Shown: piece after piece, positions 8,599 to 34,108 of the stretch
Layout of the letters: each line of letters begins with the position of its first letter
How positions within the stretch are numbered: the stretch's first letter is position 1
Source of the DNA: Ascidia mentula
Lineage: Eukaryota > Chordata > Ascidiacea > Phlebobranchia > Ascidiidae
NCBI GenBank assembly: GCA_947561715.1
Contig: OX387200.1
Location: 1,800,501-1,864,500 of the forward strand
DNA: 64,000 nt
Direction: 5' to 3'
Translations under genes and position numbers: made by a program
Notes under the pieces: generated by a model
The model's database searches: none
Told to the model about the DNA's origin: nothing
Seen by the model: the letters and a program-made list of their open reading frames with translations, nothing else

Positions 8599-8826
8599 AT
8601 GCAAGCCCAAGAAGTCATTTCGAATTTGAAAAAGTTAACTGAAGATTCCGTGATAGAACAACATGGAGGAATAGTTAACAGCCAAACAATCAGATCACTT
8701 GCTGAAGACATAGCGGAAGCTAAAAAAATTAACGACTTCGAGTACCTGCAAAAAGTAAACCGGGAAAGTCAACTCGAGAGACAGAGGATTACCAAGGATG
8801 CATTGAAAATGAACATAACTGTTTAG
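8599..8826 (+). CDS. small helical protein, channel-linked family (copy 1)
   Basis: A 75-residue protein without signal peptide or membrane segment, rich in Lys/Glu/Gln and predicted largely alpha-helical and cytosolic. It shares a pattern with the products at 17546-17776 (minus) and 33869-34108: L-x-K-L-T-E near the N terminus, an acidic helix, then E-Y-[LI]-x-K...E-S and the C-terminal box Q-R-I-T-K-x-A. Each complete copy sits next to a four-TM channel-like gene; here both genes are on the plus strand, small gene first, with 278 bp between stop and the next ATG. The shared pattern loosely resembles the linker helices between TM4 and the leucine-rich repeats of LRRC8, which is inference only. 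The ATG at 8599 matches the start position of the relatives. Confidence 0.7.
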   Translation: MQAQEVISNLKKLTEDSVIEQHGGIVNSQTIRSLAEDIAEAKKINDFEYLQKVNRESQLERQRITKDALKMNITV

Positions 8827-9104
8827 GATTATAAATGTATTGAATTCAGTGTTGCCTTAGAAATAAATGGTTTCTTCCGACTTCTGATTAAGTGTTCTGC
8901 TTTGTTATGTTGATCACTGTTGTGTTTGTTTATCATGGTGAATGTCATGCCATACCAAAAAAGTATACGTTGACTTCAACAAAAGCAATTTTGCCTCAAA
9001 AGCCTGATTATTGTGAACTGAAATAAAACCTGTTCAGATGTCTTCAACTGTTTCCTATTTGCCTTTCTAGTTTTGCAGTGTAGTAAGCATTGAAAGCCTA
9101 AATA

Positions 9105-10061
9105 ATGTCCACCCTCCAAAATCCTTTACTTAAATTATATGACCATATTGTTGGCACAATAGTGCCCTGGTGGGATACAGTTTTGATGGTTGGATCTTTT
9201 TTCCTTTTTTGGATCGGACAGACAACGAGCAATTACAAGCCAGGATTAGAAGGAAATCTAATTTTTTGCCACAACAATGCCTCAGGTATAAACAGATGTA
9301 TTATTGAGAATTTGTTTTTGTTAAATTGTTTATCACTCTAATTTGGTAAAGTTTCCGTTTAGTTTTCTAAAAAATGGCACTTTATTATAGAGTTAACGGA
9401 ACTGAAGTATCTGACAAAATGCGTCTTTGAACTATATTGGATCGAACGAAACTTCGGATATTTTTGTACAATTCTGTCTGTTTCGTTCGGTTTAAGTATC
9501 ATCGCTTGGAGGTTGCATCCAGAGGCAAGAGCTGTCATGGCTGAATGGCGATTTATTTCCGAAGAAATTCCTAACGTACAGCGGCACGAAATTGATAAAT
9601 ATCACAAATTAATGAGCAAACCTAGAGCAGATAGAGATACGGAGTCGAATAACTTTAGGTTAATTCATAAAATGAAGGAGATCGTTGACAGGAAGATAGA
9701 AATAACTCCAGGCCTTCGTATATTCACTTCATACTTCAGTAAGATTGTATTTACCATTTTCTGCTTTATATTCCTAATTATTGGTAAAATATTTATTCGA
9801 GAATCTTATCATTGTAACCTGTTCCATTGCAGAAAATCCGTAACATTCCAATGTATTTTGAAATCTCACGAAACTTATTTCACAACATATTGTTTGTTTT
9901 ATTGGATCATATGGCTTTCTATTTACATAATGTTACATGCAAATAATCGTTTAAATGGAAACAAGTTTGGTTCAAATGAATATATGTTGATACTGTTGTT
10001 TAAAGAGCAACGATTACAAGAATCGGACAATGAAAATGTAAAACGAATCACAACAACTTAG
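9105..10061 (+). CDS. LRRC8-like pannexin-domain four-TM protein without LRRs (copy 1)
   Basis: Two exons, 9105-9285 and 9391-10061 (852 nt, 283 residues), with a phase 1 junction. Exon 1 carries an N-terminal helix, P-W-W-D, TM1 and one extracellular Cys. Exon 2 carries Cys-Val-Phe-Glu-Leu-x-Trp-Ile-Glu-Arg, TM2, the motif W-R-L-H-P-E-A-R-A, a charged cytoplasmic loop of about 65 residues, TM3, a Cys pair in the second extracellular loop, TM4 and a tail of about 40 residues with K-F-G-S-N-E-Y-M. Motif order and cysteines match the pannexin-like domain of LRRC8, suggesting an anion or small-molecule channel subunit at the plasma membrane. No leucine-rich repeats follow. Pyrimidine tracts with acceptors CTAG and GCAG at about 9067-9078 precede the ATG, so the mRNA may be trans-spliced or have a 5' UTR intron. 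Confidence 0.8.
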
Positions 10062-11255
10062 GAAAAACAATATTGATGTTTTTACGTCAAGTTAACACAA
10101 CCTAAACCGTTTGTACGTTTTAACACTATACGCGTGCATTTTCAAAACCTTTCATGTCGACTTCCTATTCGTTTTTGCCATTACAGTAACTGTAGATTAC
10201 ACTGTACTTGGTTTGAAAAATTGAATCGTTGACAGAATAAAATTCATTCAGATTTTATGGTTCGAGTTGGCACAAGTATAGTAAACTGGTCGTGTTTAGT
10301 GACAATATATTATGTTGTACAATGCGTATTGCAAGACATACATGACAGGTGAGAATACCGGAGACAAATGGACGTTAAATTTTTTGTGGTGCTTGGTGTC
10401 TGTTATCGTTAAATGGAAGATGCACTCTTATGAACTTGGATTCCTAATTTACCTTTTGTTTACGTTGAGCAATATGTGACTGGCCAAAAAGGCTACGGCA
10501 GATTTGGGCCAAAAACGTTTTTTAATGATTGTTTGGTGATCTTTCAGTTAAATTGGCTCTCTTCAAACTAATGACCAACAAGATGACGTTCAGTTTCTGT
10601 TTGCAAGCTTATTTGGCGCCACTAGTGTCAGCTCTCTTGATTTACCTTGTTTTAAGCTGTTGTTTTTAAATAGTGTGTGTGACCACGTACGTCCCTCTCG
10701 TTCTCTTGCGAGTTTATTGTTCGCAAAAGGTTATTTCGCAATGACCTAATATCATTCAAATAAAACATAGAAAGCAAGTCTCTTTTACCGTGTATAGGTT
10801 TGGCAAGGATACTTAGATACATATGTCAGGTTTTGCTAAATCTTGTTTATGAGATTTTTCGCCAGATCTTATAATGTGTATGTTTCGGTGAGATCACATT
10901 TGAAATACAAATAGTGCTGAATCTCGAGTTACGTTGACATCATTGTTTCAACAATGGAGCTTTTTCCTACGTGTGCATTCGTTGCGATTACTCCAGCGAG
11001 AGCAAGTTTTCGCCTGTGCATCGAAGCGTGACATTACCTTTTTTGTGCCCCATTGCCCTTTATAAAAGCTTGCTTTGGATTACACCAGCTATGAAGAGCT
11101 TTGCTTGGTGCTTCAATTGGCCGCCAATGAATCTGGCGAAATATCTCCCATAAGTAGAAATGTATCAGAAAAATCTATATATGTATCCAAACAATTTTAC
11201 CAAACCTATGCATTCAAAGAGGCAAAAATCTTTTGTTATTTGTGTTGTGCGTTCT
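10062..11255. other. intergenic
   Basis: No exon is supported. The only notable item is a repeat of the CCACGTACGT-containing motif near 10680, also found upstream of the small gene at 8369. Confidence 0.35.
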
Positions 11256-11570
11256 GCGACATTTACCTATTTACCCAAAGAGGATTGCAGCAAATATTGT
11301 GCATTCTGTAACCAACACCACAGTAATCATTTGCAATTGTATAATTTTGCATATATTTATTTGCAATAAACTAATAGTTCGCAATGTTGAAAAAAGTACT
11401 CAACACTGATTCTGTAAAAAAATCAAATGTAAAATATAATTCATACGTGCTCACTGAAATATTGCAGTGGGTACAAAACATACAAAAGTTTTCTCTGTAA
11501 ATTGTAACAATATGTAGCACTACGACATTCCAAGAAAACAAAGCTGTGTCACGAAGGTGCTGGGACCGTT

Positions 11571-11635
11571 AATCGTGCATTTTCGACCGAAAATTTTTCC
11601 AGACTTTTTAGTGATTTCTTGTTTCGCTTTCCACT
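11571..11635 (-). pseudogene. remnant of the small helical-protein gene (C-terminal codons)
   Basis: This stretch matches the last ~20 codons of the gene at 17546-17776 on the same strand, including the Ile-Thr-Lys-Lys box. The rest of the gene is deleted. Confidence 0.65.
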
Positions 11636-11836
11636 ATATAAAAAGGTTGGTTTGATGCATAAAGTCTCTTGCACATCCCTTGCTGAGGGCATCTATCAAG
11701 ATATAACACGAAGCAGCAAACTTACTGGAATACTCAGCTACAGAAACTAAAACCCGGAACAATAATTTAGACGTGAAAACAAAAGTAAGAGTGTAGTCGT
11801 GTTAATTTCGCATCCAATCGACAAAGATTTGTTAAA

Positions 11837-12140
11837 ATGGCTTCCGTTCAATAACCACTCTTAAAATTGTTGGGAACAATAGTGCCCTGGTGGGACACGC
11901 TGCTGTTTCTCAATGCATTGTTTCTCCTAATTATTGGAGAGTCAATTGATGGTTGCGACCCAGGATCAGAAGACATGTTTGTGTTCTGTTACAACCCCTC
12001 CACTGGTGAGAAATAATTTGGTTTCATTCCAGAGGCTAATTAAGGCTGTATTAATATAGACACTTCCGTTGTCTGTTTATTTTTTATCTTACATTTATCC
12101 AAAATGATGAAGGCAAATAATTGCGTAGTTCTGGATGAAC
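11837..12140 (+). pseudogene. LRRC8-like channel pseudogene
   Basis: It is a close copy of exon 1 and the start of exon 2 of the gene at 18765. Codon 6 is a stop, four codons are missing in the Tyr-Asp-His-Ile region just before Pro-Trp-Trp-Asp, and exon 2 is cut off after about five codons. The sequence is otherwise so similar to the parent that the duplication must be recent. Confidence 0.85.
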
Positions 12141-12865
12141 AATCCCTTTAAATTTGACGATCTCTGCTCTCTTATCTCTATTGTGAGGTTCACGGGCATC
12201 GCAGCCAAGCAGGATTTTTTTCCCGGTCAGGTTTCTCTTTGATTTGTTGGTCGGGCGCTTGGCCTTTAGCGACTTCTAGTGTGCACTAAATCCACACAGA
12301 CATATCCACTTCATGGTGTAAATGATTCGTTAAAGAAGTCTGTTTCAAGAGCCTGTTTGTTTACCTAACCACATGTGAGATTATTGGAATGTACGCGTTT
12401 AGGGACAATTTTCTCGGTCACGTAAAAATTCAACCATTCACAAAGAGTACTTATTGACAAACTCAAAGTTGAAATAAATAACCCTCGTTACTCAAGAGCT
12501 TATTTCTCCACGCCTCGTCATCTTTACAATGACACATACATCTCCGCTTAGTGGTTTACGACTCAATATCATTTACACCAGTGTTTCTCATTCCGATTAT
12601 TTAACAGACTGTTGTTTGCTGCTAAAACGACTGATTTGTGCGTTTTTGCGTTTCGTACTTCAACATAATTACGTCGTAATAAAGGCAAGAAGCTCTACTG
12701 CCAACACTTTTCTATATACGTTCGGTTAATTCTGTTATGAAAACGCAATAACACAAAAACTTAAACAACTCTACTATGTTATTCGACTTGAACATTAAAA
12801 AATATATTATTACAACGCCAACAGTGAACTAAAGACACAATACTCGAAAATCAAATAAGACATAG

Positions 12866-12893
12866 GGAGGGGGGGGGGGGTGTTGGGGGAGAA
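12866..12893 (+). repeat. G-rich tract, potential G-quadruplex
   Basis: It contains a run of G residues longer than ten, flanked by GGG and GGGGG groups, in an otherwise AT-rich segment just upstream of a small-gene remnant. Several G-tracts in close succession are enough for a quadruplex. Confidence 0.6.
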
Positions 12894-12906
12894 AGGTAAT
12901 TGTAAT

Positions 12907-12996
12907 TGCTTGTCAGAGATATAGCGAAAGCTAAAATGATTGACAATTTAGCGTACCTGCAAAAAGTAATTCCTCAGAGTCATCTCAAGAGACTAT
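12907..12996 (+). pseudogene. remnant of the small helical-protein gene
   Basis: It aligns with about 8697-8785 of the intact gene (Ala-Glu-Asp-Ile-Ala-Glu-Ala-Lys and Tyr-Leu-Gln-Lys-Val codons). There is no start codon and no intact frame. It stands upstream of a channel exon 1 remnant, so order and orientation match the 8.6-10.1 kb module. Confidence 0.7.
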
Positions 12997-13261
12997 CTGA
13001 ACCCTAATTTCCAAATTACGTCCCATTTTTTATTATTTTACGTTGGTAATGATGTTTCTACGAAGTGCAATGGAGAAGTTTTACAAAATGTAAACACGAT
13101 TTTTTACGTACCCTGTAATTATCCATAAAGCCTACAGTCAACTTATTTATTAAATTTCTAATGATGTCATATTTCATATTTCTTGTGCAAACAATCGTAA
13201 TAATTCAGTATAAACTGCCTTCCTTTTTAGCTATATTAATTACCAAAAACAAGCTTCTGTA

Positions 13262-13442
13262 ATGACGACTTTTCAAAATCCCTTGCTTAAATTATACGAA
13301 CACATTACTGGCATTATATTGCCTTGATGGGACACAGTTTTAATCTTAAGTTCCTTTTTTCTGTCGTTAATCGGACAGACAACTTACAATTATCAGCCAG
13401 GTTCGGAAGGAAACCATATTTTTTGCCATCATGTCTCCTCAG
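13262..13442 (+). pseudogene. LRRC8-like channel exon 1 pseudogene
   Basis: It is exactly 181 nt, as in intact exon 1 copies. The first Trp codon of the Pro-Trp-Trp-Asp motif is TGA and the donor is GC instead of GT. No exon 2 was found downstream. It is most similar to the copy at 9105. Confidence 0.85.
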
Positions 13443-13595
13443 GCAAGATTAAAGTTGTTAAGAGAAATAAAATAAACTCTTGTGCGCGTTCATCTCAATG
13501 ACGGGCATAGAACAAAGTAACCCCGTGGAGCAATAGTGTTTTTTCCCTGTGGCGTGATAAAGGTTTCCCCGTATCGCCCGTCCGTGAGGTGGTTA

Positions 13596-13735
13596 AGCGA
13601 TATGGGGGAACTCCGGCGCTTATTTCAGGTTGTTCTCGGAATGTCGTAAGGTGATTTTCCAAAGCATTTCTGCACATTACGCCAATAAAGTCCAACAACA
13701 AGTTGACGACATTTTACAATCCGTCCGACAATTAT
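13596..13735. repeat. dispersed repeat, copy A
   Basis: A stretch starting near GGAACTCCGGCGCTTATTT and ending near ACAAGTTGACGACATTT is repeated at 14745-14835 with small gaps. The nature of the repeat is unknown. Confidence 0.5.
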
Positions 13736-14744
13736 ACGAGCCCAGTCACAGCACTTCACAGTTCACACGCACATGTACGTGTTTAAGTTTGCTGTATGCA
13801 AGATGGGAATTATTCGATACTCCTACTATTGTAATTTATTTCAATCACCTTTTAATCATGCTGCTTTGCATATTCATAATTTTTCATGTGTTTTACCGTT
13901 AAAAAGGAAAGATATATGGGCCTGAAGAGTATATGCAAAGTGGAGCCAATAATATGAATTGTGCGTAAGCTGAAGAGTATATGTTGTTTTGCTGTTTAGA
14001 CAACGACGTTTGCAGAACTGACCAAACAAATCCTATTTTAAAGGATGCTGTTAACCACAAAATACTCAGAAAAACTGGTATTTCAATTGTGTCAGATCTT
14101 AAAAGCAATGCAAGCTGTTGTCATAATGAGTGCGACAGTGTTACATTAACGGCAATATAACGTGCGACGCTAGACCTCGAACTTGAGTCCAAACGGTTCG
14201 TCGTGCTTAAACATACCATAGCATGGCGGGTGATTGGTAACATCGGTCAAGCGCAAAGGATTGTAATGGTGACCTAACACGGGAATATATTTTTAAACAA
14301 TTATTAAACACGCGTCCATGCAACAAATTGACGTTTCTTCATATTTCTTTGGGAAATCAAGATGCAAGAATTTTCAAGTAAACAGAATGGCGCAAATTCT
14401 TTAGTTGGTGGGTTTTGTACAACAGCACCAAAGCTTTTTGCGTCGTATTGTAAAATGAAAAGTTGTTTTGGCATGTTACCGGTCGATGTGTGCAAAGTAA
14501 ATTCAGCACCCCGGCTAAAAAAGGGCTGCAGATCAAATTACAAAAACACAGTTTCAAATTCGGCGTCGGATGCTTTTAAACAACGTCCTTTTTTCATTGG
14601 TTTCAAGCGATGTATGCTGTGGGATAAGTTTCGACGCTATGTTGTAAAACAGTTTCGACGCTGTGTTGTAATTAAGTCGTATTGTATCACGTGGTGACGA
14701 AGAAAGGGAACAATAAATGAATAAGTAACTTGTGACGTCGTTTA

Positions 14745-14835
14745 CCGAACTCCCGCACTTATTTGTTCAGGTTTGTTCGCTGACTGTCGTAAGGGGATAT
14801 TTTCCATAAACAAGTTGACGACATTTCCCCTCACA
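14745..14835. repeat. dispersed repeat, copy B
   Basis: Same order of words as copy A at 13596-13735, about 25-30 nt shorter because of an internal gap. No coding potential is evident. Confidence 0.5.
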
Positions 14836-16985: not shown

Positions 16986-17003
16986 ACTAACCTTGCGGAG
17001 CAG

Positions 17004-18764: not shown

Positions 18765-19734
18765 ATGGCATCCATTCAAGAACCACTCCTAAAATTGTAC
18801 GACCACATATTGGGGACAATAGTGCCCTGGTGGGATACACTGTTGTTTCTCAATGCATTTTTTCTCCTAATTATTGGACAGTCAATTGATGATTACGACC
18901 CAGGATCAGAAGACAAGTTTGTGTTCTGTTACAACCCCTCCACAGGTAAGAAATAATTTGGTTTTATTCCAAAGACTAATTAAGGCAGTAATAATATAAA
19001 CACTTCAGTTGTCTGTTTTTTTTATCTTACATTTATCCAAAATAATGAAGGCAAATAATTGCGTAGTTTTGGATGAACTTAATGCAACAACAAATTGCAT
19101 TTACGAACTTTCGTGGATTGAACGCAATTACGGATCGTTGGCAACGATATTGGCTGTTTTGTTTGGATTCATCATCGTTATCTGGAGATTACATCCCGAG
19201 GCAAGAGCAACCATGAGCGGATGGAAGTTCGTGTATGAACACTCGTCCAGTATTACGATTGCTGACGTCGAGGAATTTTGGGAAAAACTTAGAAAACCTC
19301 AAATGGAAAGAAAGTTTAGCGGAAAAGCAACTGTTATCTTAAAAATGAAAGAAATTGTAAATAAAAAAATACAGAGTACGTGGTTTCTTCAATTAATTAC
19401 ATCTAATTTTGCAAAAAGTATATGCACGTTCGCATTGGGTCTTATTTTAGGATTAAGTTGGTATTCTTTGCGATTTTCTTATCAATGTGTTGTCTTTCAC
19501 CATCGACCCAGATTGTTTGATTGTGTTTTAAAACCTTATGGAAGTTTTTGCACAAAGTCATTTGTACTTATTTTCCTTCTAACTGTCTCAATATTTATTA
19601 CACATGATGCAAACAAGCGTTTAGGAGGTAAAAGGTTTGGTTCAATCGAATACATGAAGGAATTCATGATAAAACAAAAAGGTTTGCCTGGTGGAGTCAC
19701 AGATATCTGGCACAGAATCCGCGAAGATAACTGA
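18765..19734 (+). CDS. LRRC8-like pannexin-domain four-TM protein without LRRs (copy 2)
   Basis: Exons 18765-18945 and 19067-19734 (849 nt, 282 residues), phase 1. Residues 21-24 are P-W-W-D; TM1 about 25-42; Cys55; Cys71 followed by I-Y-E-L-S-W-I-E-R; TM2 about 84-100; W-R-L-H-P-E-A-R at 100-107; cytoplasmic loop 108-165; TM3 about 176-194; Cys201 and Cys213; TM4 about 223-240; R-F-G-S-I-E-Y at 250-256. In LRRC8A the corresponding cysteines are C54, C115, C295 and C310, which form C54-C310 and C115-C295 bonds. The cytoplasmic loop is much shorter than in LRRC8, and the protein ends about 40 residues after TM4. A channel-forming role is inferred from this architecture. This is the parent-like copy of the 11.8 kb pseudogene. 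Confidence 0.82.
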
Positions 19735-21167: not shown

Positions 21168-21847
21168 TCAATGACCAATAACATTGTAAAAATTTCTTTG
21201 GTCACTTCTATGCAAACGTTGTTGAGTACGCAACATTGCAATCATGTAGTCAGGGGATCCAAACTTCTTACCTTTTAAGTGCCAACTTGCGTGTAACATA
21301 GTTAAAAGGGAAGCACCAAAAATAAATGTAAACAAAACAAAGTATGGTTTCAAAATACATTGATAATATATATGTAATTTGACGCATTGATTGTGTTGCG
21401 AAAGATATTGACCAAGGACACAACGATATTCAAATCTTATATTGAACCAAATGCAGCGGTGTAAAATAAAACATGCCAATGTCCACGCAGGTCTAAATAA
21501 GTAAGACGTCATTATTGATAATGAGAAACTTAACTCTTTTACCAGAGAATCAATAATTTCTTTCATTTTTGCGATAATAGCAAAATTACCGATAACATTG
21601 TTTCTGTTTTCTACAGGAGTGCTTATTTCTTGGTTATAATTTTCAATCTCACTTTGTTGTATGTCTGTTATATGATTATATATATACCGCCATTCATTCA
21701 TTAAAGCTCTTGCTTCGGGGTGTATCCTCCACACAACAACACTGAGTCCATAAACTGCAGCTAGAATGGTAGAAAAAAATCCAAAATTCCGTTCAAACCA
21801 GGAAAGCTCATAAACGCACGGTGTCAGGTACTCTAGTTCTTCTAAGT
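21168..21847 (-). CDS. LRRC8-like channel exon 2 without a recognisable exon 1 (partial)
   Basis: An open exon 2 of 680 nt begins after a good acceptor (TTTTTATGCAG) in phase 1, as in the complete copies. It encodes Cys-Val-Tyr-Glu-Leu-Ser-Trp-Phe-Glu-Arg-Asn-Phe-Gly, TM2, W-R-I-H-P-E-A-R-A, the cytoplasmic loop, TM3, a longer second extracellular loop with Cys residues, TM4 and K-F-G-S-P-D-Y. No Pro-Trp-Trp exon was found between here and the MAPK7-like exon at 22540. It may be a truncated gene whose exon 2 has stayed open, or it may use a distant exon 1; the exon at 24065-24239 is on the same strand with the same phase. Confidence 0.6.
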
Positions 21848-22539
21848 CTGCATAAAAACATATGTTTAAATATAGAAAGGTGTGAAAATTATGAATGATT
21901 GTTACATCAGGGCAAGTTACAAATCAGTGTTAGAATGGCATTGGAGAATACGGTAAGGAGACCTGCTTTGTTTTTCTTGGTCAGGATACCCATGAAATAT
22001 TACTGTTTAAAAACTACTGTGCATGGAAGTGTTTTTCACGATGCTTAAATTAATAGTGGTAATTTTTGTCTGATATATTTTTTATTTAAAATAAACAGCC
22101 CAGGTTCAAAAATTTCTCTCAAGCACACTTCGAATGCACATAGCGAACCAAAAACTTGGAAACCTAGATTTCAACGATTTGCCCTTAAAAAGTCTGCGAA
22201 TTCTCGATCACATGTTGAACAGGTTTACATAACAAAACATGACACATTGAATTTATGGACGTCAAGAGACCAGAATAAAAGACTATTTTAACCCACATTA
22301 CTCAAAAAAAATTAAATTAAACATACGCTATGCAGGTTAAGCAAAGTATGTAGTTTCTTGTCGTAAACCTGAAAGACAGATTTCAAAATTTTAGCTTCGA
22401 ATTTAAAATAAAGACGGGATTGCTGTAACAGCTATCTTTTATTTGGCTTTTGTTTTGGCTGGAACTTGCAATGAAAGAAAACATTCAACTGAGCTCAGGC
22501 CACAAGGCACAGATCGGACAAGAAAGTTTTACAAAAACG

Positions 22540-22984: not shown

Positions 22985-23215
22985 TATTAAAAAAAATTTT
23001 ATATATGCATATATGATGCATTAAATAAGCATTGCATAAAATGAAAATACAAGAACATGCCATATAATTACATTTTTTATTCATAACATATCATAACGTA
23101 TCCAAAACGTTTCCGTATTACAATTATGACTATATACGCAATTGTAACATCTATAACAACTAGCACATTTCGGTGTATAGTGTCTTGTAGGTGTTTAAGG
23201 CAACCTCATGTAACA
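22985..23215. repeat. segmental duplication unit A, 3' flank (pairs with 29460-29672)
   Basis: Long near-identical match to 29460-29672, in direct orientation, immediately downstream of the channel gene at 23234-24239. At the second site the similarity breaks off where the gene should begin. Confidence 0.85.
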
Positions 23216-23233
23216 TAAACACCGCAAAGTTTT

Positions 23234-24239
23234 TTATTGGGTTAGGTTTTGTATTGTATTTTGTTGTTGTTGTGATAACTGCTTTTCCATTGAATGTAGC
23301 AATAGCATATACTTAACAGAACCGAACCGCAAAAATTTAAGTTGCCTTAAAGTATATTCCATAACTGCAATCGCCATGACAAATATGGCTGAACAAAGAT
23401 ACGTATTTCTCTTGTAAATTCCGTAAGGCTTTAGAATGCAGTGAAATTCTTGATTATTTATAAAGCAGATGTGGTTTAAATCTATACACATAGAAGATAT
23501 AAGTATGACTATCCATATACCAATGGCACACCTACATTTAAACACGTAAGATGACAATTTCTGTGTTGTCCAGTGCTTTTCTTTTTCAGCAGACAGAAAA
23601 ATTTCTTTGAATTGATGTAGAGTCGCAAAGCAAGGTTTTTTTGTCAAAAAAAATTCATGTCTTTTGTCACCCGGCCGAACGTATTGCCGCTTGAAATCTT
23701 CAATGTCGTGCTTTGAAATATTTTTAATATTTTCAAATACGTAAGACCACTGTGCCAACACACCCCTTGCTTCAGGATGCAACCGCCACACAACAAGGAT
23801 TATATTCAGTGCAGTAATTAGGACTGTAGTGAAATATCCAAAATTGCGTTCCATCCAGTTTGTTTGGTAAACACAGTTTGAGACTGCATACACCTCATTA
23901 GCTGTGTGAGTATCACAAGTGCTATCATTTTTCACTGTTTCATAAAATTCGTACTCCGTGTATTTGTTTTCTTCTGTCTGAAAATGATTGTGTGTAAAAG
24001 TACTGTAACCTAATCAAAGTCATCAACCAAACACAAAGTATGAAACAAACAAAGCAAATCTTACCATTATGTATTTTGCAATAAACCAATAAGCTATTTT
24101 CATATCCCGGAACATAGTTGTCAGTGGATTGTGTTGTTACAAACTGCAGGAATGCCAAAAAATACGAAGCCGTTTCCCACCATGGCACCATTGTTCCAAA
24201 ATTATAACCAAACAAGCTTTTTATTAAATGTTCTATCAT
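23234..24239 (-). CDS. LRRC8-like four-TM protein, PWWE subfamily (copy 3)
   Basis: Exons 24239-24065 and 23973-23234 on the minus strand (915 nt, 304 residues), phase 1 junction. The acceptor chosen is the ACAG at 23974-23977, because the CAG three bases upstream gives a stop. It has Pro-Trp-Trp-Glu instead of Pro-Trp-Trp-Asp, TM1, Cys-Lys-Ile, Cys-Val-Tyr-Gln-Thr-Asn-Trp-Met-Glu-Arg, W-R-L-H-P-E-A-R, TM3, two Cys in the second loop and TM4. Exon 2 starts with an extra acidic, Thr-rich stretch that makes the first extracellular loop longer than in other copies. It is closest to copy 4. No small-protein partner was found beside it, although Met-Glu-Glu codons start a short frame at about 24531. 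Confidence 0.78.
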
Positions 24240-24310: not shown

Positions 24311-24390
24311 TGACTGGCCCATATTGTTATTAACACTGACATGGTAAAATAAGACGTTTCGACAAAAACTTATGTCATCATCACTGAAAA
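24311..24390. repeat. single copy of the 4.07-4.57 kb inverted-repeat terminus
   Basis: It shares the word order GACTGGCCCATATTNTTATT ... CGTTTCG ... AAAAACTTATG with the left arm of the element at 4067. It lies just upstream of channel copy 3. Confidence 0.6.
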
Positions 24391-24577
24391 GTTTTGCTCT
24401 TGATCAGAATAAAAGCATACTTTAAGTTGCGAATTTTCATCAAAAAATAATAACTTGATCACTAAAGAATACAATTAAAATGGCCATAGAAAATTGATAA
24501 AACCAACGAAGAAAGCGCTTCGCATAAACATGGAAGAATTCAAACTTATGGTTGGATTGCAAAAGATAAAACAACTA

Positions 24578-26150
24578 CATTGAAACTACGAACAGTACAC
24601 ATAGGTTTAATAATTGAAAGTTTGAAGCAAAAGTCTTGTGTTTTAGAACGAGTAAATAATTCGAACACATGTTGTTTCAAGTAGTTTTAGTGTGGAATAT
24701 ATGATCCTGAAAGTTTCACACCAACATAAATAAAGGAAACCAATCCGACAAAGACTTTCAGAACTGGAGATAACTCCTCTTCAGCCTTTATCTAAAACGT
24801 ACCAGGTATTTTGTACACGAATAGCGGTAGTTACATCAGACAAAAATGCACGCTATTCGTACATTAAAGCGACTTGTTAGTTTGGCTGTTTTAACTTGGC
24901 ACTCAGCTTGGTATCGTGCTTGGGTTTTGTGGTGGAGTTATAACGTATTCTGTAAAAGTTAGTTTATGAGTGACTTTTTCGGCCGATTGGTTATTACAAC
25001 GGATATTAGATTCAGTAAGTTGTAATTAGTGCATAGCACAAGCGTGGTTTACGATTTCGTCTTTGACAATTGTCTACGGCAGTCGCCGTTAAACTTTTTT
25101 GGTCGCATCCCATGACATTATTTTTTAAATCTTGTGCCCTTCATTCCTCGAAAAACAGCCAGCATTCAAAAACAGTGTTTTATTTATTTTTAATATCCAC
25201 TCATCAAACCCGTGTTTAAAAAAGTGTTTAATGCTCAGTTTTGTGGATGACAATTCAACAACGCACATCACAGGAAGACTGCTCAGTCGAGTTCGTATTT
25301 ACTAACGAAAAACAACTAGTCCGTAATCCAAAACCACTGTAGTCATAATAAACATTATTGGGTCACAGTTACATTGTGACCAATTGACAATATGCCCTCG
25401 TATAGTCCCGGTTTACCAACAAACGGCAAAGATTTACACAGAAATAATAAACAACAGATCACTGATTTGTCGTTAGACAGTTATTCTCTGTGCTCTCCCT
25501 AAAGGTGAGTACCCCCAGTTTAAGAATCCCGGTGTTGGTTTACACAGTTATGTTAAAATGAGGTTGTCTATGCTGTTGCATCGTTTATTGCGGCTATTTT
25601 GTTTATTTCCTGTTACGGCGTTTTGCTCTGGCATATGTTTGATGTTTGTTTTTTGGCATTTTTTTATGAACAAAATACCATTTGCATTTTTGTCGTCACA
25701 TGCCTCACTTCCAATATACAAAGATGTTACGTTTTTACTCGTTTTCTTCTTATTTGCGCAGAATTTCGATGCATATTTTCTCGTCTGATCTGGGAGTTTG
25801 TACAGAGGGCTTACGAGCAGATACCAGTTGTAACACCAGTAATAAAAAAATGGCAACACGAAGTTAAACGTTCAGTCTTGTAAAGCAACTCTGCAACTGC
25901 ACTCGTCCAAAGTATTGCGATACGATAAAGGCGAAGCTGGATATAGCAAATGATTGTGGATCAGTTTACGCATGTGTGTGTGTGTTGCCATGAGCACCGT
26001 TATAACACAATGGTACGCAGAGGGAAACTTGTTGTGTGTTTTTTTGGAAGGAAACCTTGACGACGAGTTCTTCAGTATCTAGTTTCAAGTATGCAATGTG
26101 CCTACGTGCTTCCTGACTCAGGATCGCTGGCGTGCTATATTTGGTAGGAT
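24578..26150. repeat. segmental duplication unit B (pairs with 29822-31210)
   Basis: Over 1 kb of nearly uninterrupted high identity with 29822-30870, then patchier similarity to about 31210. It contains a short shared open stretch starting Met-Arg-Leu-Ser-Met-Leu-Leu-His (25558 and 30776) that diverges after some 25 codons, so coding is doubtful. Confidence 0.85.
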
Positions 26151-26613: not shown

Positions 26614-27684
26614 TTAAAATAGTTCTTGTATTTTTTGTCGCTTTTTTTCTGAAAAATGGCTTTGCATCGAATGCATTAATACCATATATTTAACCGAACC
26701 AAACTCTGAAGGTTTAAGCAGCCAATAAGCAGTCAATGTTACAAATGCCGCCACTGCGAATATGAGAGTACAAAGACAAGTACTTCTTTGATAAACTTGG
26801 TATGACTTGAGAATGCAGTGAAGTTCTTGATTATTGACAAAACATGTGTGGTTTATATCTATATATGTATAACACACAAATAATACAAACCATATAGCAT
26901 ATGTACATTTGAATTTAAAACTGTAGGAAGACAACCACAATGTTGTCCAATGCTTTCTTTTTTTCGCCGAATTTATTGCTTCTCTGAATTTTTCCATAGA
27001 CGCAAAGGGTGAAGTTGACGTTAAAAATGTAACGTAATCTTTTGTTTCTGTCAGCAACTTAAACTCGTCAATATCGCGCTGAGACAAAGTATCAATGTTT
27101 TCAAATACAAAAGTCCACTGTGCCATCGCAGCCCTTGCCTCAGGATGCAACCGCCACAGTATAAGGGTTATGCTCAACGCGCTAATTAGGACTGTAATAA
27201 TATATCCAAAATTGCGTTCCATGTAGTTTGTTTGGAAAGCACAACTTGTTGCTTCATAGGCACCTGCATGCCAAGAATCACCATTGTAAAATTTTATTTA
27301 AGGCTCATGCTAATCTAATTTGAAATTCAACCTACTTGGTGCTTGCATATTGCAATGGCTAGAATTTTTTACTACTTTAAAAAACGAATAATTCATGGTT
27401 GATTCCGCATGACCGTGGCCTGCAATTGTATTTATATATATATAGGTTACGTGTTATAGCAAAAATATAAGTTACGAGTAACTTTTACTGTAAAACCAAA
27501 GAATCTCACCACTTTGAACTTTGCAACAATCCAAAAAACTTTTTTCATTACCCGGGACGTAGTCGACTGTGGATTGTGCGATTAAAAACAGTGGAAGTAC
27601 CAAAACCAACAAAACCATTTCCCACCATGGCACCGTTGTTCCAAAAATATAATTATACAAGCTTTTTATAAAATGGTCTATCAT
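26614..27684 (-). CDS. LRRC8-like four-TM protein, PWWE subfamily (copy 4)
   Basis: Exons 27684-27510 and 27263-26614 on the minus strand (825 nt, 274 residues), phase 1. It has Pro-Trp-Trp-Glu, TM1, Cys-Cys-Lys at the end of exon 1, Cys-Ala-Phe-Gln-Thr-Asn-Tyr-Met-Glu-Arg-Asn-Phe-Gly, W-R-L-H-P-E-A-R-A, a short cytoplasmic loop, TM3, two Cys in loop 2, TM4 and E-F-G-S-V-K-Y-M. The shared exon lengths (175 nt for exon 1) and sequence make it the sister of copy 3. The start at 27684 aligns with that of copy 3; an upstream in-frame extension without support was ignored. No small-protein partner was found. Confidence 0.8.
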
Positions 27685-29459
27685 TTTGGTGAGAAAGGAA
27701 ATCCTGTCTTGATCTTTATACAAAACAAACATTAATGCTCAGAAAAATACATCGCCTGACGGAAATCGAGTCGAAAAAGATAAAACAACAAAAGATATGA
27801 CGGTAATTAGAAACACTCTGTTTCAAACATTTTCTATCCGCTAATTGATGTCGCGAGTTTTAAGACAGCGCCACATCAGGGGATATAGATTCTGTCCACT
27901 TTAGAGATCAAGATGTGTATACAAGGTAACACAAGAAACGTTTGCGCATGTAATAAACGTTTGCATGATTATAGACATCGACCTGAGCCAGAAAATAAGC
28001 AAGCTGGAAAAAATAAGGAAATGTTCAATAATTTCTGTAAGGCTTGTTTTCGACTTATAAGCACGTTAAAATTAAAAAATTAAAATAAGAGCATTTTTCA
28101 GAAATACGTCTTTTGCAATCTGTAATACACAGCTCACAAAAATAAGCACAAATCTTAGAAATATACATAGCATGGCAACGTTAAAAGTAAGTACGGTATA
28201 TATTTACAAGCAAGTTTAAATGATTTCGACGTGATTGTTGTTCCAAAATAAACAATCAGTTTAGAAAAAAATTCTGAGCAATGTAAAATATCGACAACAA
28301 AAATAAAACAAATCCCAGGAAATCCGATCGCATCAGAGTATCACTAGGCTTGTTCTAAGTGAAAACATAAAGCTAAATTACGATTAAACCAGCAAGAGAA
28401 TACTCAGACTTTACCTTTCCATTTTCTTGGCTTTGTTTGCCCTCGTTGTTCGCATGATTTGCGCAAATCTCTTTAAAACAAGCAATTTTTTTGTAGGTTT
28501 CAAATCCCATAGCTACCTTTACGTGTCACTAAACTTTATGGGGATATGGTTTCACGCTTTGGTCAAAATCTTGCACAAAACCTTCCACTGAAATCTCTTA
28601 TATATTAAACCGAATATTTGTTTCGCTTGTGTGACAAGCACAATTGTTCTGTCAAACAACAAAATCTTTCACCGCAGTTGGTCAAGGAAAAAATGAACAT
28701 AAATAAGAGGTGGTTCTACGGAAGACAAAGGCAATAGGGACAATAGCGACGTTGCGAATGTTGCGCAACATTGTTACAATAGGTGTGATCACATTTCAAA
28801 GGGTATGCTTGTGTATTTTGTAGTCAGGCCCAACGCTCTACCAACTGAGCTACAGGAGATCAGCAGTTTCACGGGTATATTGTGGCCACGGTACATTGGT
28901 GCTCAAGCGCACAACTTGCCAGGCAACCTTCACATATACGTAGGGGATCTCTACCACCATATCAGACAACGCAGTAATATTTTATGCAATGTCATGATTG
29001 GCCACTGGACCTGTGAAGTGGTTGATCCAGTTAGGGTGAATTTCCTGGGCTGCCAAGCCTGCAAACCTAGGTTAAATTAAATGTTAACTGCAATGTAAAA
29101 AAAAACTGTTTACCGAACGTTCTGTGTCAATACCCATTGCGCTCGTACGTTTCTGGGCGCTATGTTACACCACGTATCAGTTGGTCTACAAATTCGACAC
29201 ATCACAGTTCGTATTGTCTGGCACGTATGTCACCATCAGAGGGTCCGGCTATTTTAATGACAAAAAAGTTTAATATGTATGTTACAACCTTGGTGTAATT
29301 ACAAACCTTCATGAAACGACCCGCTCGTCGCGTGTGCGTGCGGTGGAAAATCAAATAAATTCCATTAAGGTAACGAAAGGTTAGGACCTCATGGCTTCCC
29401 TATTGGTATTACAGACTTGTTGTTTGCTGCCGGACCAAAAAGTACTAAGGTGTCAGCAT
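27685..29459. other. intergenic
   Basis: No exon is supported. On the minus strand, 28824-28852 reads TAGCTCAGTTGGTAGAGC, a perfect polymerase III A box of a tRNA D-arm. No B box or tRNA fold follows, so it is a tRNA-derived fragment or SINE head. Confidence 0.35.
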
Positions 29460-31210
29460 ATATTATTCATTAAATAAGCATTGCATAAAATGAAAATACA
29501 AGAACATACCATATCATTACATTTTTTATTCATAACATATCATAACGTATCCAAAACGTTTCCGTATTACAATTATGACTATATACGCAATTGTAACATC
29601 TATAACAACCAGCACATTTCGGTGTATAGTGTCTTGTAGGTGTTTAAGGCAACCTTATGTAATATAAACATATAATACATTTTATAATACATTATAAAAT
29701 CAGAAGCGTGGACACAAAGTTGTTCTAGTAACATTTAAAAAAAGAAGAAGGTTAACCTGTGTCACGTGAAAGAAGTGCTGCTGGTTAGGTAGATTTCATG
29801 AAGTAAAAACATTTTATTGCAACATTAAAACTACGAACAGTACACATAGGTTTAATGATTGAAAGTTTGAAGCAAAAGTCTTGTGTTTTAGAACGAGTAA
29901 ATAATTCGAACACATGTTGTTTCAAGAAGTTTTAGTGTTGAATATATGATCCAGAAAGTTTCACACCAACATAAATAAAGGAAATCAATCCGACAAACAC
30001 TTTCAGAACTGGAGATAACTCCTCTTTAGCCTTTATCTAAAACAAACCAGGTATTTTGTACACGAATAGAGGTAGTTACATCAGACAAAAATGCACGCTA
30101 TTTGTACATTAAAGCGACTTGTTAGTTTGGCTGTTTTAACTTGGCTCTCAGCTTGGTATCGTGCTTGGGTTTTGTGGTGGAGTTATAACGTATTCTGTAA
30201 CAGTTAGTTTATGAGTGACTTTTTCGGCCGATTGGTTATTACAACGGATATTAGATTCAGTAAGTTGTAATTAGTACGTAGCACAAGCGTGGTTTTCGAT
30301 TTCGTTTTGACAATTGTCTACGGCAGTGGCTGTTAAACTTATTTGGTCGCACCCCATGACATTATTTTTTAAATCTTGTGCCCTTCATCCTCGAAAAACA
30401 GCCAGCATTCAAAAACAGTGTTTTATTTATTTTTAATATCCACTCATCAAACCCGTGTTTAAAAAAGTGTTTAATGCTCAGTTTTGTGGATGACAATTCG
30501 ACAACGCACATCACAGGAAGACTGCTCAGTCGGGTTCGTACTTACTAACGAAAAACAACTAGTCCGTAATCCAAAACCACTGTTGTCAACATAATAAACA
30601 TTATTGGGTCACAGTCTTGTATAGTCCCGTTTTACCTACAAACGGCAAAGATTTACACAGAAATCATAAACATGAACAGATCACTGATTGGTCGTTAGAC
30701 AGTTATTCATGCTCCCCCTAAAGGTGAGTACCCCCAGTTTAAGAACCCGGTATTGGTTTACACAGTTATGTTAAAATGAGGTTGTCTATGTTGCTGCATC
30801 GTTTATTGCGGCTATTTTGTTTATTTCCTGTTACGGCGTTTTTGCTCTGGCATATGTTTGATGTTTGTTTTTTGGCATTGTTCAAATCTGCAATTTTCAT
30901 GCAGGTGTCAATAACGATGCTCCGGAAAGTTAAAACAAATGAAAAGTGGCTACACTAAGTTAAACATTCAGTCCTGTTGAACAGGATGGAAACAACACTC
31001 GTCCAAAGTATTGTGACTCGATAAAGGTGAAGCTGGATATAACAATTGATTGTGTATCAGTTTCTGTATAGGGTGTGTGAGCATGAGCACCGTTTTAACA
31101 AGACAAATCAAAACTTGACGACGGGATGTTTTATCCCGTATCAAGTATCCAGTTACCTGTCTACGTGCTTCCTGCGACTCAGGATTGCTGGTTTGCTCTA
31201 TAAACGCTAT
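29460..31210. repeat. second copy of the channel-gene segment, lacking the gene
   Basis: 29460-29672 matches the 3' flank (22985-23215) and 29822-31210 matches the 5' side (24578-26150) of the segment that holds channel copy 3. The gene itself is missing between them and replaced by about 150 bp of unrelated sequence. Confidence 0.8.
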
Positions 31211-31721
31211 GCAAAAATGGCGAAAACATGATTCTAAGCCGAAATAAATTCCAACGTATTTCATATAGCGTCAAACCTGGCATTTCAAATACCTAGAGTT
31301 TATACAACTTTGCAAAGTGCGGTGTACAATGATGCTTCCTTGAAACACGACGTCAAGCACTGCAAAGCTCATGTTTTCATCAAGTGTATCGGAGTAAAAA
31401 TAATTTTGAGTTAATTCCAACTAAATTATCGTCAAACGGACTTGGAAAAAGGTTACGCAAATCTTGCATAGCATCACATGCTACTTGTGGCAAGTAAAGG
31501 TTAACTTTTTCTCATACAAAAACTCAGCAAAGCTTTCCACATTTATTCCGTGACCCAAGGTCTAATATTTAGCAAACATGGTTCCGCTCAAAGGTATATC
31601 AGGCATTGTAATTTTCAAACACTTGCACACTTGGTTAAACCAATAAATGAAAGCTATTGTATAGCTATAAATACACAACAGAGCTTCCTATCTATTTTAC
31701 CCTTTTTTGATTACTTTTTGG

Positions 31722-32963
31722 TCATAGCGACCTTAATATTTCCCTGTCACTGTTGTTCAAGGGCTTTTGCTCGAATAACATTTCATGCATATACTTATAT
31801 GAACCAAATGGTTTTTCACGTAAACGTGAATGTGCATAAAACATTATTGCTTCACAACCAACAATAATGATAACAAACAATAAAAATGATGTGGTATAAT
31901 TGTCATATACTTTTAGGGTGCATTTAAAAAGTGTTGGACGCCGGTGTATAATCCAACAATCATACGTGTACCTAACAGAATACCAACAGGCAATGTTTAA
32001 AAGCAAAAGCAATGAAGTTAACAACATTTTAAGACCGTACGAAGTCAGATTTTCAAGGCCCTTCGTCATTTGCACGGGACAAGCAACGATTTGTTTCAGT
32101 TTTCCTATTAAGGCGAAGTTTCTTTTTCGTATATTCCTTCTTTTTTTAGGTGCGCTCATTTCATGGTCGTACTCATCAACTTCCGATTTCTGTACTCGTG
32201 GAATATGTTCCAATACAAAAAGCCATTTGGTCATGACAGCCCTGGCCTCGGGATGCAATCTCCAGATATGGACAACAATTCCGAACAAAACGACAACGAT
32301 TATGGAAATATAACCGAAGTTTCGTTCAATCCAAGAAAGTTCGTAAACGCATTTTGTAAGATTGAACAGTTCTCCCAGATCTGCAATGAAGGATAAATTG
32401 ATAAATTTGTTTGACAAAAAAAAAAAAAAAATTTTATTTGTGTATAAGGTGCAGACAGATGGCCACTGTTTCGACCTAAAAGGTCTCATCAGTGCAGCTG
32501 ATGTGACTATCAGAAGACTTTGCTGACCAAACGGCCAAGCAAAGACTTCCACTTTGTGGTGACTATACAGTCACCGTCATCCGTTGGGCACCAAACTAAG
32601 CAAGCTCAACCAATAGTGCCGTCAGGCCCCGTGTCACAATAATCATAAGATAAGCAATGTGGAGCCAATAAGTCTGCAGCTTATACACAAATTCATATTA
32701 TTAGCTCCACATTGCTTATCATAAATTTTATTTGTTTTTGATCTTTTACGATAATTCCAAGACAAAATTTCAAACGTCTAACCTGAGGAGACATTGTGGC
32801 AGGAGATAAGGTTTTTCTCCGAACCTGGCTTGTAGACGTCCGTAGCCTGGGCTATATAGAAAAGCAGAAACACACTAAACAGCAAAACAGTATCCCACCA
32901 TGGTATGATGGTACCCAAAACGTGATCATAGAGCTTTATAAAGGGGTATTCAAGTCGAGACAT
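31722..32963 (-). CDS. LRRC8-like pannexin-domain four-TM protein without LRRs (copy 5)
   Basis: Exons 32963-32783 and 32380-31722 on the minus strand (840 nt, 279 residues), phase 1. It has I-I-P-W-W-D, TM1, Cys-His-Asn, Cys-Val-Tyr-Glu-Leu-Ser-Trp-Ile-Glu-Arg-Asn-Phe-Gly, W-R-L-H-P-E-A-R-A, TM3, a Cys pair in loop 2 (Tyr-Asp-Cys ... Lys-Cys-Thr-Leu-Lys), TM4 and P-F-G-S-Y-K-Y-M. The 402-bp intron, longer than in its relatives, holds a hammerhead-bearing repeat in the same orientation as the gene. It is divergent from the small gene at 33869, with 905 bp between start codons. Assignment as a channel subunit is by homology of the membrane domain. Confidence 0.82.
32430..32725 (-). mobile_element. 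hammerhead-ribozyme repeat (retrozyme-like), copy 2, intronic
   Basis: On the minus strand it carries the most complete body of the family (GTGACACGGGGCCTGACGG ... TTTGGTGCCCAACGGATGACGG ... TGTATAGTCACC ... hammerhead). At its upstream end a reversed partial unit makes inverted 23-bp arms (32652-32674 and 32697-32719). A 16-bp poly(A) run lies just outside at about 32416-32431. Confidence 0.75.
32447..32499 (-). ncRNA. type I hammerhead ribozyme (sense in channel intron)
   Basis: Core CTGATGA and GAAA, stem II GACC/GGTC with TTTTA loop, stem III CAG/CTG and cleavage nucleotides TC are all intact. Stem I pairs AGCTGCA with TGCACCT, one internal mismatch. It lies in the intron of copy 5 and is transcribed with it. 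Confidence 0.85.
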
Positions 32964-33868
32964 TTTTTTTACGTCTTATGAATCCTAAAAGACTAAAATT
33001 AATCTGTCATTGACCCTGTCAGGCATAGTGACGAAAGCCTTTTTTTACATAGGTTTGAATATAGTTCAAAACTAATCAGAAACGACAATCTGCAAGGTAA
33101 ATCTTTCCTTTTATAATTACTTATATCGTATTTCAGTAACATTTTAACGCTCTTGGCCGACCATCGCCCATGCGAAGAGTGCTATATTCTGTTTCATGTC
33201 GCAAGCCTTATGTCAATCGCATTAGATGAATAATATTTACTGCATCATATTTACGGGGAATTACGCTAAGATTTTATTTAAGATTTTAACGACAAATTTT
33301 GAATTAAACTTCTGCATTACGGTAAAATATATGTAATTTCCACCAAACACGTGATAAACAAGATTTGTCCAAAGGCTATCCCCAAATGTTACTTTTTACC
33401 GACATCATTCTTATTCCCTACCCATCAGCTGTTAATCAAAATATATTTAGCACGATGTTTCTCAAACATAAAATCTTCTGTCAAATATAAATGGTTTGCT
33501 GAAACACTATTTTACTGCACTATTGCTGGTGAGGCTTTACCTGTAAATATTATTCTTGTACGTCATGGACAAAAGCTATAATGAGACCTTAGCCTTTTGT
33601 CAAACTCTACATTCTTTGTTGCAATTGAGCAACACACAGGTGCGCGTTTCGGGAACCGAATTTATTATATATATATACGTCACATCTAGCGGAACGGTGA
33701 AAGAAACACTAATATTTGATTGATTTAATTGTCACGAAGGAAACCGTTACCAATGTTTCAGGCCATAGTTTGGCGGAGGTTTAAAGTAAGATAGGTGTTT
33801 TAAATAGTTGTACAAGTTATCGCATACAAACTCGTATTGCGTACACATACAACAAACATCAGAGAAGA
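32964..33868. promoter_or_regulatory. candidate bidirectional promoter region
   Basis: Shared upstream region of channel copy 5 and small gene copy 3. It mirrors 17777-18764. No specific element was assigned; an (AT)n run lies at about 33665. Confidence 0.4.
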
Positions 33869-34108
33869 ATGGAGTTCCAAGATGCTGCTTCATATTTGTT
33901 AAAACTGACAGAGGACTTCGTACTTTCAAAGTACGAAAACCAGGATAAAGCCGTCGAAAAGTTGGTTGGAGACATTAAAATGGCCCATGAGTACAATGAT
34001 ACTGAATACATCAAAAAGTTGGAATGGGAATCACAACACGAAAATCAACGAATCACGAAAACGGCGTGGGAAAAATATCATTCGATGGCAGCTGCGGGAA
34101 AAGCTTAA
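33869..34108 (+). CDS. small helical protein, channel-linked family (copy 3)
   Basis: A 79-residue single-exon product, soluble and helical. Family pattern: Y-L-L-K-L-T-E-D near the N terminus, Y-N-D-T-E-Y-I-K-K-L in the middle, then Q-R-I-T-K-T-A-W. It is head-to-head with channel copy 5, as copy 2 is with channel copy 2. Its first helix (L-L-K-L-T-E-D-F) is the best match in the family to L-H-L-I-D-Q-Y of the LRRC8 linker after TM4, and R-I-T-K-x-A resembles R-L-T-K-N-A further on in that linker. These comparisons are from memory and weak on their own. No domain was recognised otherwise. Confidence 0.7.
   Translation: MEFQDAASYLLKLTEDFVLSKYENQDKAVEKLVGDIKMAHEYNDTEYIKKLEWESQHENQRITKTAWEKYHSMAAAGKA

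What the first reader, a model, noticed from the sequence alone, without database searches (positions are those of the whole stretch)
8599..34108. Tandem family of LRR-less, LRRC8-like four-TM channel proteins
Five complete two-exon genes share Pro-Trp-Trp-Asp/Glu before TM1, one Cys in loop 1, Cys then an aromatic stretch before TM2, a Cys pair in loop 2 and an F-G-S-x-x-Y motif after TM4. Human LRRC8A (recalled, not searched) has K-P-W-W-D before TM1, C54, C115, C295/C310 and Y-S-F-E-S after TM4. The window proteins end about 40 residues past TM4 and have no leucine-rich repeats. They may represent the pre-fusion pannexin-like module or a secondary loss of the LRR half.
Basis: partly seen in the sequence, partly recalled or inferred. 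Interest (0 to 1): 0.88.

Follow-up and report, generated by a model that had tools for sequence, protein, structure and literature searches.

The report
Sea squirt LRRC8-like channels lacking repeats
A sea squirt chromosome carries a cluster of genes for small four-helix membrane proteins that look like the pore half of the vertebrate cell-volume channel LRRC8 without its leucine-rich sensor half; searches of the same genome found dozens of larger relatives but no recognisable LRRC8.

Summary
The window, from a tunicate (mitochondrial AGR read as glycine), holds five intact spliced genes of 279-318 residues plus broken copies. None of the five matches PF12534, innexin, CALHM or connexin in Pfam, and direct comparison with LRRC8 is not significant. 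Two lines tie them to LRRC8. (1) An AlphaFold2 model of gene A, made from window sequence only, has LRRC8 as all 50 listed of 267 hits among 350,542 PDB chains (best E 1e-4); a poorer model of gene D lists 35 LRRC8 and 15 pannexin 1. (2) A sequence bridge: the genome holds a large, apparently unnamed family (49 loci with an N-terminus) of KPWWE four-helix proteins. A profile of ten has LRRC8 as its 25 best PDB hits (2.8e-6; the other four 0.16 or worse), 3 of 10 hit PF12534, and the window profile aligns with it from PWW to loop 2 (1e-6), mostly through TM1-TM2. Searches found no canonical LRRC8 in this genome. Best reading: an LRR-less pore-module family sharing ancestry with LRRC8, probably glycosylated large-pore anion/osmolyte channels. 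Pre-fusion state versus loss of the LRR half is undecided.

The parts
9105..10061 (+). Gene A, exons 9105-9285 and 9391-10061, 283 aa, LRR-less LRRC8-like four-TM protein
   Evidence: gene model; fold, PDB hits; profile links
11837..12004 (+). Orphan exon 1 (stop inside), pseudogene fragment; 214 bases around it (11870-12083) are 91% identical to the gene B exon 1 region
13262..13444 (+). Orphan exon 1 with an in-frame TGA, pseudogene fragment
18765..19734 (+). Gene B, exons 18765-18945 and 19067-19734, 282 aa
   Evidence: gene model; alignment
21186..21851 (-). Orphan exon 2 (open frame 21168-21923), no exon 1 recognised upstream
23234..24239 (-). Gene C, exons 24239-24065 and 24009-23234, 316 aa; acceptor of the intron not certain
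   Evidence: alignment
26614..27732 (-). Gene D, three exons 27732-27510, 27419-27336, 27263-26614, 318 aa from the first ATG (second ATG 27684-27682)
   Evidence: fold; link to long family
31722..32963 (-). Gene E, exons 32963-32783 and 32380-31722, 279 aa
   Evidence: scored by the long-family HMM
2346..2501 (-). C-terminal remnant of a further copy (three stops)
   Evidence: G000:C67:1802846-1803001

Best explanation
The cluster is a tandem family of tunicate four-transmembrane proteins that share ancestry with the pore ('pannexin-like') module of LRRC8 volume-regulated anion channels and have no leucine-rich repeats. Gene models and predicted fold show TM1-TM2 joined by a loop with two or more cysteines, a loop of roughly 70-80 residues between TM2 and TM3, TM3-TM4 joined by a two-cysteine beta hairpin (in part of low confidence), and a tail of 30-40 residues. 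Orientation (both ends cytoplasmic) is inferred from LRRC8. Subunits most likely oligomerise around a central pore and act as glycosylated, non-junctional large-pore channels for anions or small osmolytes (inferred from the fold relatives and from loop-1 N-glycosylation sequons in 5 of 5 genes). Without LRRs, gating cannot use the LRRC8 cytoplasmic sensor; it would depend on the N-terminus, the cytoplasmic loop, or partner subunits such as the co-occurring long-loop family (inference).
For: Fold of gene A, without templates, from window sequence only: pTM 0.62; Foldseek against 350,542 PDB chains: 50 of 267 hits listed, 50 of 50 LRRC8, best E 9.6e-5, prob 1.00, 31 hits with E<=0.001. Gene D model (pTM 0.53): 35 LRRC8 and 15 pannexin 1 of 50 listed, best E 4.8e-3. 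Long-family N-terminal profile against 177,635 PDB sequences: 25 best of 29 hits are LRRC8 (D 2.8e-6, C 5.9e-5, A 0.0028-0.046), next 0.16; PF12534 in 3 of 10 long members, best 1e-4. Window profile against long-family TM module: hhalign 91%, E 1e-6 (81%, 1.2e-5 with query and target exchanged), score 53.3 against a maximum of 31.6 in 100 column shuffles. Long-family HMM: genes E and D 23.2 and 17.3 bits, best of 2000 local shuffles 10.9. Loop-1 sequons in 5 of 5 window genes and 10 of 10 long proteins.
Against: 0 of 5 window proteins hit PF12534 and the window profile finds no LRRC8 in the PDB by sequence at E<=10. Window against an LRRC8 profile: 2.9%, score 25.2, inside the shuffle range (max 26.5); as single sequences LRRC8A 1.9% is no better than PANX1 2.3%. 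The window-long link rests on TM1-TM2 (75% alone); TM3-TM4 alone gives 0.9%. In the best PDB profile hit the two matched stretches are each weak (0.15 and 0.55); their sum gives 2.8e-6. Only 2 of 5 genes stand clearly above decoys with the long-family HMM. TM-scores are modest (0.46-0.55), on a model with 35 intron codons, a low-confidence loop 1 and a shallow alignment. No expression, oligomer or transport data.
Confidence: 0.72

Rival explanations
1. They are diverged pannexins/innexins (the chordate innexin lineage), not specifically LRRC8 relatives.
For: LRRC8 and pannexins share a fold; the gene D model also matches pannexin 1 (15 of 50 listed). The window profile compared directly scores PANX1 (2.3%) and LRRC8A (1.9%) alike. 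Published work gives most tunicates one innexin (passage of PMC8769644) and lists a pannexin in Ciona (passage of PMC6391747), and none was recognised here.
Against: Gene A model: 0 of 50 listed hits are pannexin. The long-family profile finds LRRC8 and no pannexin among 29 PDB hits. hhalign of the long N-part, all as single sequences: LRRC8A 72%, LRRC8C 86%, LRRC8D 50%, PANX1 2.1%, INX6 5.9%. P-W-W before TM1 is in LRRC8A, C and D and not in the PANX1 and INX6 sequences used.
Confidence: 0.14
2. Secondary loss (a sub-case of the best explanation): tunicates once had a full LRRC8, and the window and long families descend from it after loss of the LRR half.
For: LRRC8 is held to have arisen with chordates (passages of PMC9399500 and PMC5064130), and tunicates are chordates; no TM+LRR gene was found here.
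Against: No LRR domain was recognised in the 5 window or 10 long proteins, and no trace of the LRRC8 post-TM4 linker. The tree only shows window+long apart from LRRC8+PANX1+INX6 (99/98).
Confidence: 0.4
3. Pre-fusion (a sub-case of the best explanation): the family descends from the pannexin-like module before it joined an LRR domain.
For: The same data; the LRR-less form is found in 5 of 5 window and 10 of 10 long proteins examined.
Against: LRRC8-like genes are said to exist in Nematostella (review passage of PMC9399500), which could make the fusion older than tunicates.
Confidence: 0.3
4. The similarity is convergence plus AlphaFold memory of LRRC8: an unrelated four-TM family with a PWW motif.
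For: Direct window-LRRC8 sequence similarity is not significant; the alignment given to the predictor had only 12 rows of window sequence.
Against: Two sequence steps that use no structure prediction (window-long, long-LRRC8) are each significant against controls; a second paralogue gives the same fold class.
Confidence: 0.13

Closest known systems
LRRC8A-E (VRAC subunits), Pfam PF12534 Pannexin_like region
   Same: Predicted four-TM fold, PWW(D/E) before TM1, loop-1 cysteine, cysteine shortly before TM2, two loop-2 cysteines
   Different: No LRRs, tail of 30-40 residues, no PF12534 match, V/I instead of K before PWW; residue at the LRRC8A R103 place is E, V, D in genes A, B, E by ungapped reading back from the pre-TM2 cysteine
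Pannexins / innexins (PF00876)
   Same: Fold class; LRR-less; loop sequons as in chordate innexins
   Different: No Pfam hit, no PWW motif in the pannexin and innexin sequences used, worse structural scores; worse profile scores for the long family
Long KPWWE family of the same genome (contigs C73, C67, C52), not named in any source seen
   Same: PWWE before TM1, loop-1 and loop-2 cysteines, loop-1 sequon, no LRRs recognised
   Different: Single open frames of 641-802 residues in 9 of the 10 aligned (one of 361), TM2-TM3 loop of roughly 340-460 residues (about 110 in the short one), longer tail
CALHM, connexin, tetraspanin, claudin (four-TM controls, recalled sequences)
   Same: Four TM helices
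   Different: hhalign probability 0.5% or less with the window profile

Membership tests
LRRC8 | PF12534 Pannexin_like match | tested here: not met
   0 of 5 window proteins at E<=1; 3 of 10 long-family proteins, best E 1e-4, cut-off status not shown
LRRC8 | C-terminal leucine-rich repeats | tested here: not met
   proteins end 30-40 residues after TM4; no LRR repeat family in hmmscan (gene E has only a sub-cutoff LRR19-TM match to a TM helix, E 0.062)
LRRC8 | PWW(D/E) directly before TM1 | tested here: met
   5 of 5; LRRC8A, C and D have KPWWD
LRRC8 | loop cysteines equivalent to C54, C113, C295, C310 of LRRC8A | tested here: met
   counterparts by position in 5 of 5; LRRC8A C57/C65 have no counterpart in A, B, E; disulfide pairing not tested
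LRRC8 | LRRC8 pore-domain fold | tested here: met
   gene A: 50 of 50 listed PDB hits LRRC8, TM-score 0.46-0.55; gene D weaker and shared with pannexin 1; B, C, E not folded
LRRC8 | hexameric swelling-activated anion channel | not testable with these tools
   needs expression, structure and electrophysiology
Pannexin/innexin | PF00876 match | tested here: not met
   no hit at E<=1 for 5 of 5; recalled PANX1 and INX6 do hit it
CALHM | PF14798 match | tested here: not met
   no hit at E<=1 for 5 of 5; recalled CALHM1 hits it at 3.7e-88
Connexin | PF00029 match | tested here: not met
   no hit at E<=1 for 5 of 5; the own genome rings 48 times with this family

The most novel reading that the evidence does not exclude
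This tunicate lineage has no LRR-bearing LRRC8 and instead runs cell-volume and osmolyte release through a radiation of dozens of sensor-swapped LRRC8-like pore subunits: bare pore modules (window family) and long-loop versions whose 340-460 residue cytoplasmic loop replaces the LRR sensor. They would carry the volume-sensitive chloride current of ascidian embryos, whose gene I have not seen named.
Probability: 0.2. Interest if true: 0.82.

Novelty: new variant of a known kind. Interest (0 to 1): 0.62.

Why it matters
LRRC8 is thought to have arisen by joining a pannexin-like pore to a leucine-rich sensor around the origin of chordates (passages). A chordate genome with many LRRC8-like pores and no recognised LRR-bearing LRRC8 would bear on when and how that fusion happened, and offers natural LRR-free pores to test what the LRR half does in gating. 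It also names candidate genes for the volume-modulated chloride channel reported in ascidian embryos (Villaz, Cinniger and Moody 1995; only the title was seen, in a reference list).

Tried and rejected
Pfam and PDB sequence searches with the window family: best Pfam E 0.0022 (Fijivirus_P9-2, under its cut-off), nothing relevant. Whole-length long-family profile against the PDB: four chance-like hits, no LRRC8; LRRC8 appears only with the N-terminal segment. Post-TM4 segments: no signal in any of nine comparisons, so the FGSxxY/YSFES resemblance is dropped. Innexin in the own genome: best E 0.34; its neighbourhood shows nothing like a pannexin to the eye. Canonical LRRC8: PF12534 over the genome gave nothing, but its 14 control genomes do not ring either; the LRRC8A TM region gave nothing at E<=10; full LRRC8A gave 46 matches, all within residues 448-806, i.e. 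in the LRR part. Connexins as a positive control gave 48 matches. These are six-frame, exon-by-exon searches with a loose first look; that first look with LRRC8A also missed the long family, so a strongly diverged LRRC8 could be hidden. Viral structure library: 0 of 64 matches with E<=0.001. Literature: in the listings (titles and abstract starts only, 3 to 20 papers each) of ten searches I saw no paper on tunicate LRRC8 or on an LRR-less LRRC8 family; the library holds only part of the literature, and Abascal and Zardoya 2012 was not read.
Full report
WHAT WAS CHECKED. The window is G000:C67:1800501-1864500 of a 195.8 Mb, 79-contig genome. Its COX1 (contig C79) gives expected glycines only if AGA/AGG are read as Gly: MIGGFGNW (MISGFSNW by the invertebrate code) and GAGTGWTV (what is expected is recalled). 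That code is reported for all tunicates studied (abstract of PMC7047913). The organism is therefore taken to be a tunicate; the species is not known.

THE GENES. Five intact genes can be spliced. The first intron sits in phase 1 at the same codon in all five. Thirty-eight columns are invariant in the five proteins, among them G-T, P-W-W, the cysteine before TM2, E-R-N, W-R-L-H-P-E-A-R, both loop-2 cysteines and F-G-S. In exon 2, dN/dS is 0.23-0.46 for the 12 of 21 pairs where dS could be computed, but dS is below 1 in only two of them (A with the copy outside the window, and C with D); exon 1 of C and D gives 0.77. Constraint is thus suggested, mainly by the open frames and invariant motifs. 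The cluster is turning over: two orphan first exons with stops, one orphan second exon, a remnant at 2346-2501, and a frameshifted copy of A outside the window.

DIRECT TESTS FAIL. No window protein reaches a Pfam cut-off; the best E is 0.0022 to an unrelated viral family, and none of the hits at E<=1 is PF12534, innexin, CALHM or connexin. The five-sequence profile finds no LRRC8 among 177,635 PDB sequences at E<=10.

THE BRIDGE. Gene D as query found a second set of genes on contig C73 at E 0.001-0.01; gene A did not list them. They encode proteins with [KT]-P-W-W-E before TM1. One of them as query gave 85 matches, of which 49, counted by eye from the table, begin at query residue 10 or earlier (45 on C73, 3 on C52, 1 on C67); 34 of the 49 are listed with an open frame of 600 residues or more. 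Only 66 of 125 candidates were scored, so this is a lower bound, and some loci are broken. I aligned ten: two fetched early and eight chosen for diversity. The profile of their first 168 positions returned 29 PDB sequences at E<=10; the best 25 are LRRC8 (D 2.8e-6, C 5.9e-5, A 0.0028-0.046), the next is 0.16. These are many constructs of three proteins. In the best hit the two matched stretches, KPWW-TM1-first cysteine and the V/I-N-x-x-C stretch with TM2, are each weak (0.15 and 0.55); collinear, they sum to 2.8e-6. PF12534 was hit by 3 of 10 (best 1e-4); the next family, a phage domain, was hit by 1 of 10 at 0.0028. With the whole 724-position profile LRRC8 is not found, so the signal lies in TM1-TM2.

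LINK OF WINDOW TO BRIDGE. hhalign of the window profile with the long family's TM module (loop omitted): 91%, E 1e-6, aligned from PWW to loop 2, window positions 19-224; 100 column shuffles reach at most 31.6 against 53.3. With query and target exchanged it is 81%, E 1.2e-5. The N-part alone gives 75% and 66% in the two directions, the TM3-to-tail part alone 0.9% and 0.6%. Long N-part with an LRRC8A/C/D profile: 90%, E 1.5e-6. Controls with the long N-part: PANX1 2.1%, INX6 5.9%, connexin 26, CALHM1, CD81 and claudin-4 0.4% or less; reversed profiles reach at most 5.3%. Window with LRRC8 directly: 2.9% with the profile; as single sequences LRRC8A 1.9% and PANX1 2.3%, so the window family alone cannot tell the two apart. 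With the long N-profile as an HMM, genes E and D score 23.2 and 17.3 bits, C 12.1, the best of 2000 locally shuffled decoys 10.9, B 6.1 (among the decoys), and A is not in the 25 rows printed; with the N+C profile D and E score 22.4 and 20.8, best decoy 12.3, and A, B, C are not in the rows printed. A TM1-TM2 tree of 20 rows separates window+long from LRRC8+PANX1+INX6 (99/98); the window genes are one group (100/100) on a very long stem inside the long family, and the program warns of long branches, so I do not rely on the position.

STRUCTURE. The model (pLDDT 66.7, pTM 0.62) has helices at 22-40, 117-137, 210-229 and 255-283 taken as TM1-TM4 and a loop-2 beta hairpin; residues 1-17, 44-102 (loop 1 with the intron codons) and 239-245 are under pLDDT 50. 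Foldseek lists 50 of 267 matches: 50 of 50 are LRRC8 chains, E 9.6e-5 to 2.4e-3, probability 1.00, TM-score by query length 0.46-0.55. Gene D (54 intron codons, pLDDT 58.6, pTM 0.53) is weaker: no match below 0.001; the 50 listed of 338 are 35 LRRC8 (ranks 1-7 among them) and 15 pannexin 1.

WHAT THE GENOME LACKS. Human LRRC8A found no TM-region match, and the full protein only matches in its LRR part, in 46 places. PF12534 over the genome found nothing, with no positive control. Connexins rang 48 times, showing that exon-by-exon search works for a four-TM family when similarity is moderate. A strongly diverged LRRC8 cannot be excluded.

MECHANISM. In LRRC8A, loops 1 and 2 form an extracellular cap with three disulfides, helix EH1 carries R103 at the selectivity filter, and cytoplasmic LRRs are coupled to the N-terminal region and pore (passages of PMC6395065). 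The window proteins keep four of the loop cysteines but no LRRs. By ungapped reading back ten residues from the pre-TM2 cysteine, the R103 place is E, V and D in A, B and E (my inference), so selectivity may differ. All five have an N-X-S/T sequon in loop 1, as do all ten long proteins; in chordate innexins such glycosylation is held to prevent gap junctions (start of the abstract of PMC8769644; passages), so I expect plasma-membrane channels rather than junctions. Orientation, oligomer, permeant ions and gating are inferred, not shown. A volume-modulated chloride channel was reported in ascidian embryos in 1995 (title only, in the reference list of PMC5064130); whether these genes carry it is open.

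STATUS. Not LRRC8 family members: two defining features (PF12534 match, LRRs) were tested and not met. They most likely descend with, and may work like, the LRRC8 pore module: a new variant of a known kind. Papers seen in passages place LRRC8 at the origin of chordates and mention LRRC8-like genes in Nematostella (PMC9399500; PMC5064130), so the direction of change, pre-fusion or loss, needs other genomes that I could not search.

Noticed in passing
G000:C73:2583000-3800000 (L038-L045, L050, L053, L054, L056, L057), also C67:14163192-14165264 (L051), C52:10004887-10006929 (L052), C52:17828090-17828578 (L055): Large, apparently unnamed family of KPWWE four-TM proteins, 49 loci with an N-terminus, LRRC8-related, no LRRs recognised, with a 340-460 residue loop between TM2 and TM3; L055 is a short 361-residue form.
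   Followed up: yes
G000:C73:2818416-2866048: Six matches with identical score to the query, the first five spaced exactly 8,566 bp apart: probably a very recent tandem amplification of one long-family gene.
   Followed up: no
window 8599-8826 (+) and 33869-34108 (+): Two similar small protein genes (75 and 79 aa; only sub-cutoff Pfam matches) flank the channel cluster; the first ends 278 bases before the start codon of gene A.
   Followed up: partly
window 24577-25351 and 29822-30594; 23007-23221 and 29456-29670: Blocks 96-97% identical, 5.2 and 6.4 kb apart: a recent duplication or copies of a mobile element.
   Followed up: no
window 5530-6698, 7630-7956, 53665-55770, 58570-60540: Mobile-element remains: reverse transcriptase and weak GIY-YIG (Penelope-like by recall), integrase core, a DUF4218 frame (sub-cutoff; transposase-like by recall), and a CCHC/integrase-p58-C retroelement frame.
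   Followed up: partly
L038, L040, L043 (C73:2583097-2584389, 2604326-2607145, 2632925-2635840): Three long-family frames carry an in-frame array of the unit SSSGGAAIGQGGQ near the C-terminus, of different length in each.
   Followed up: no
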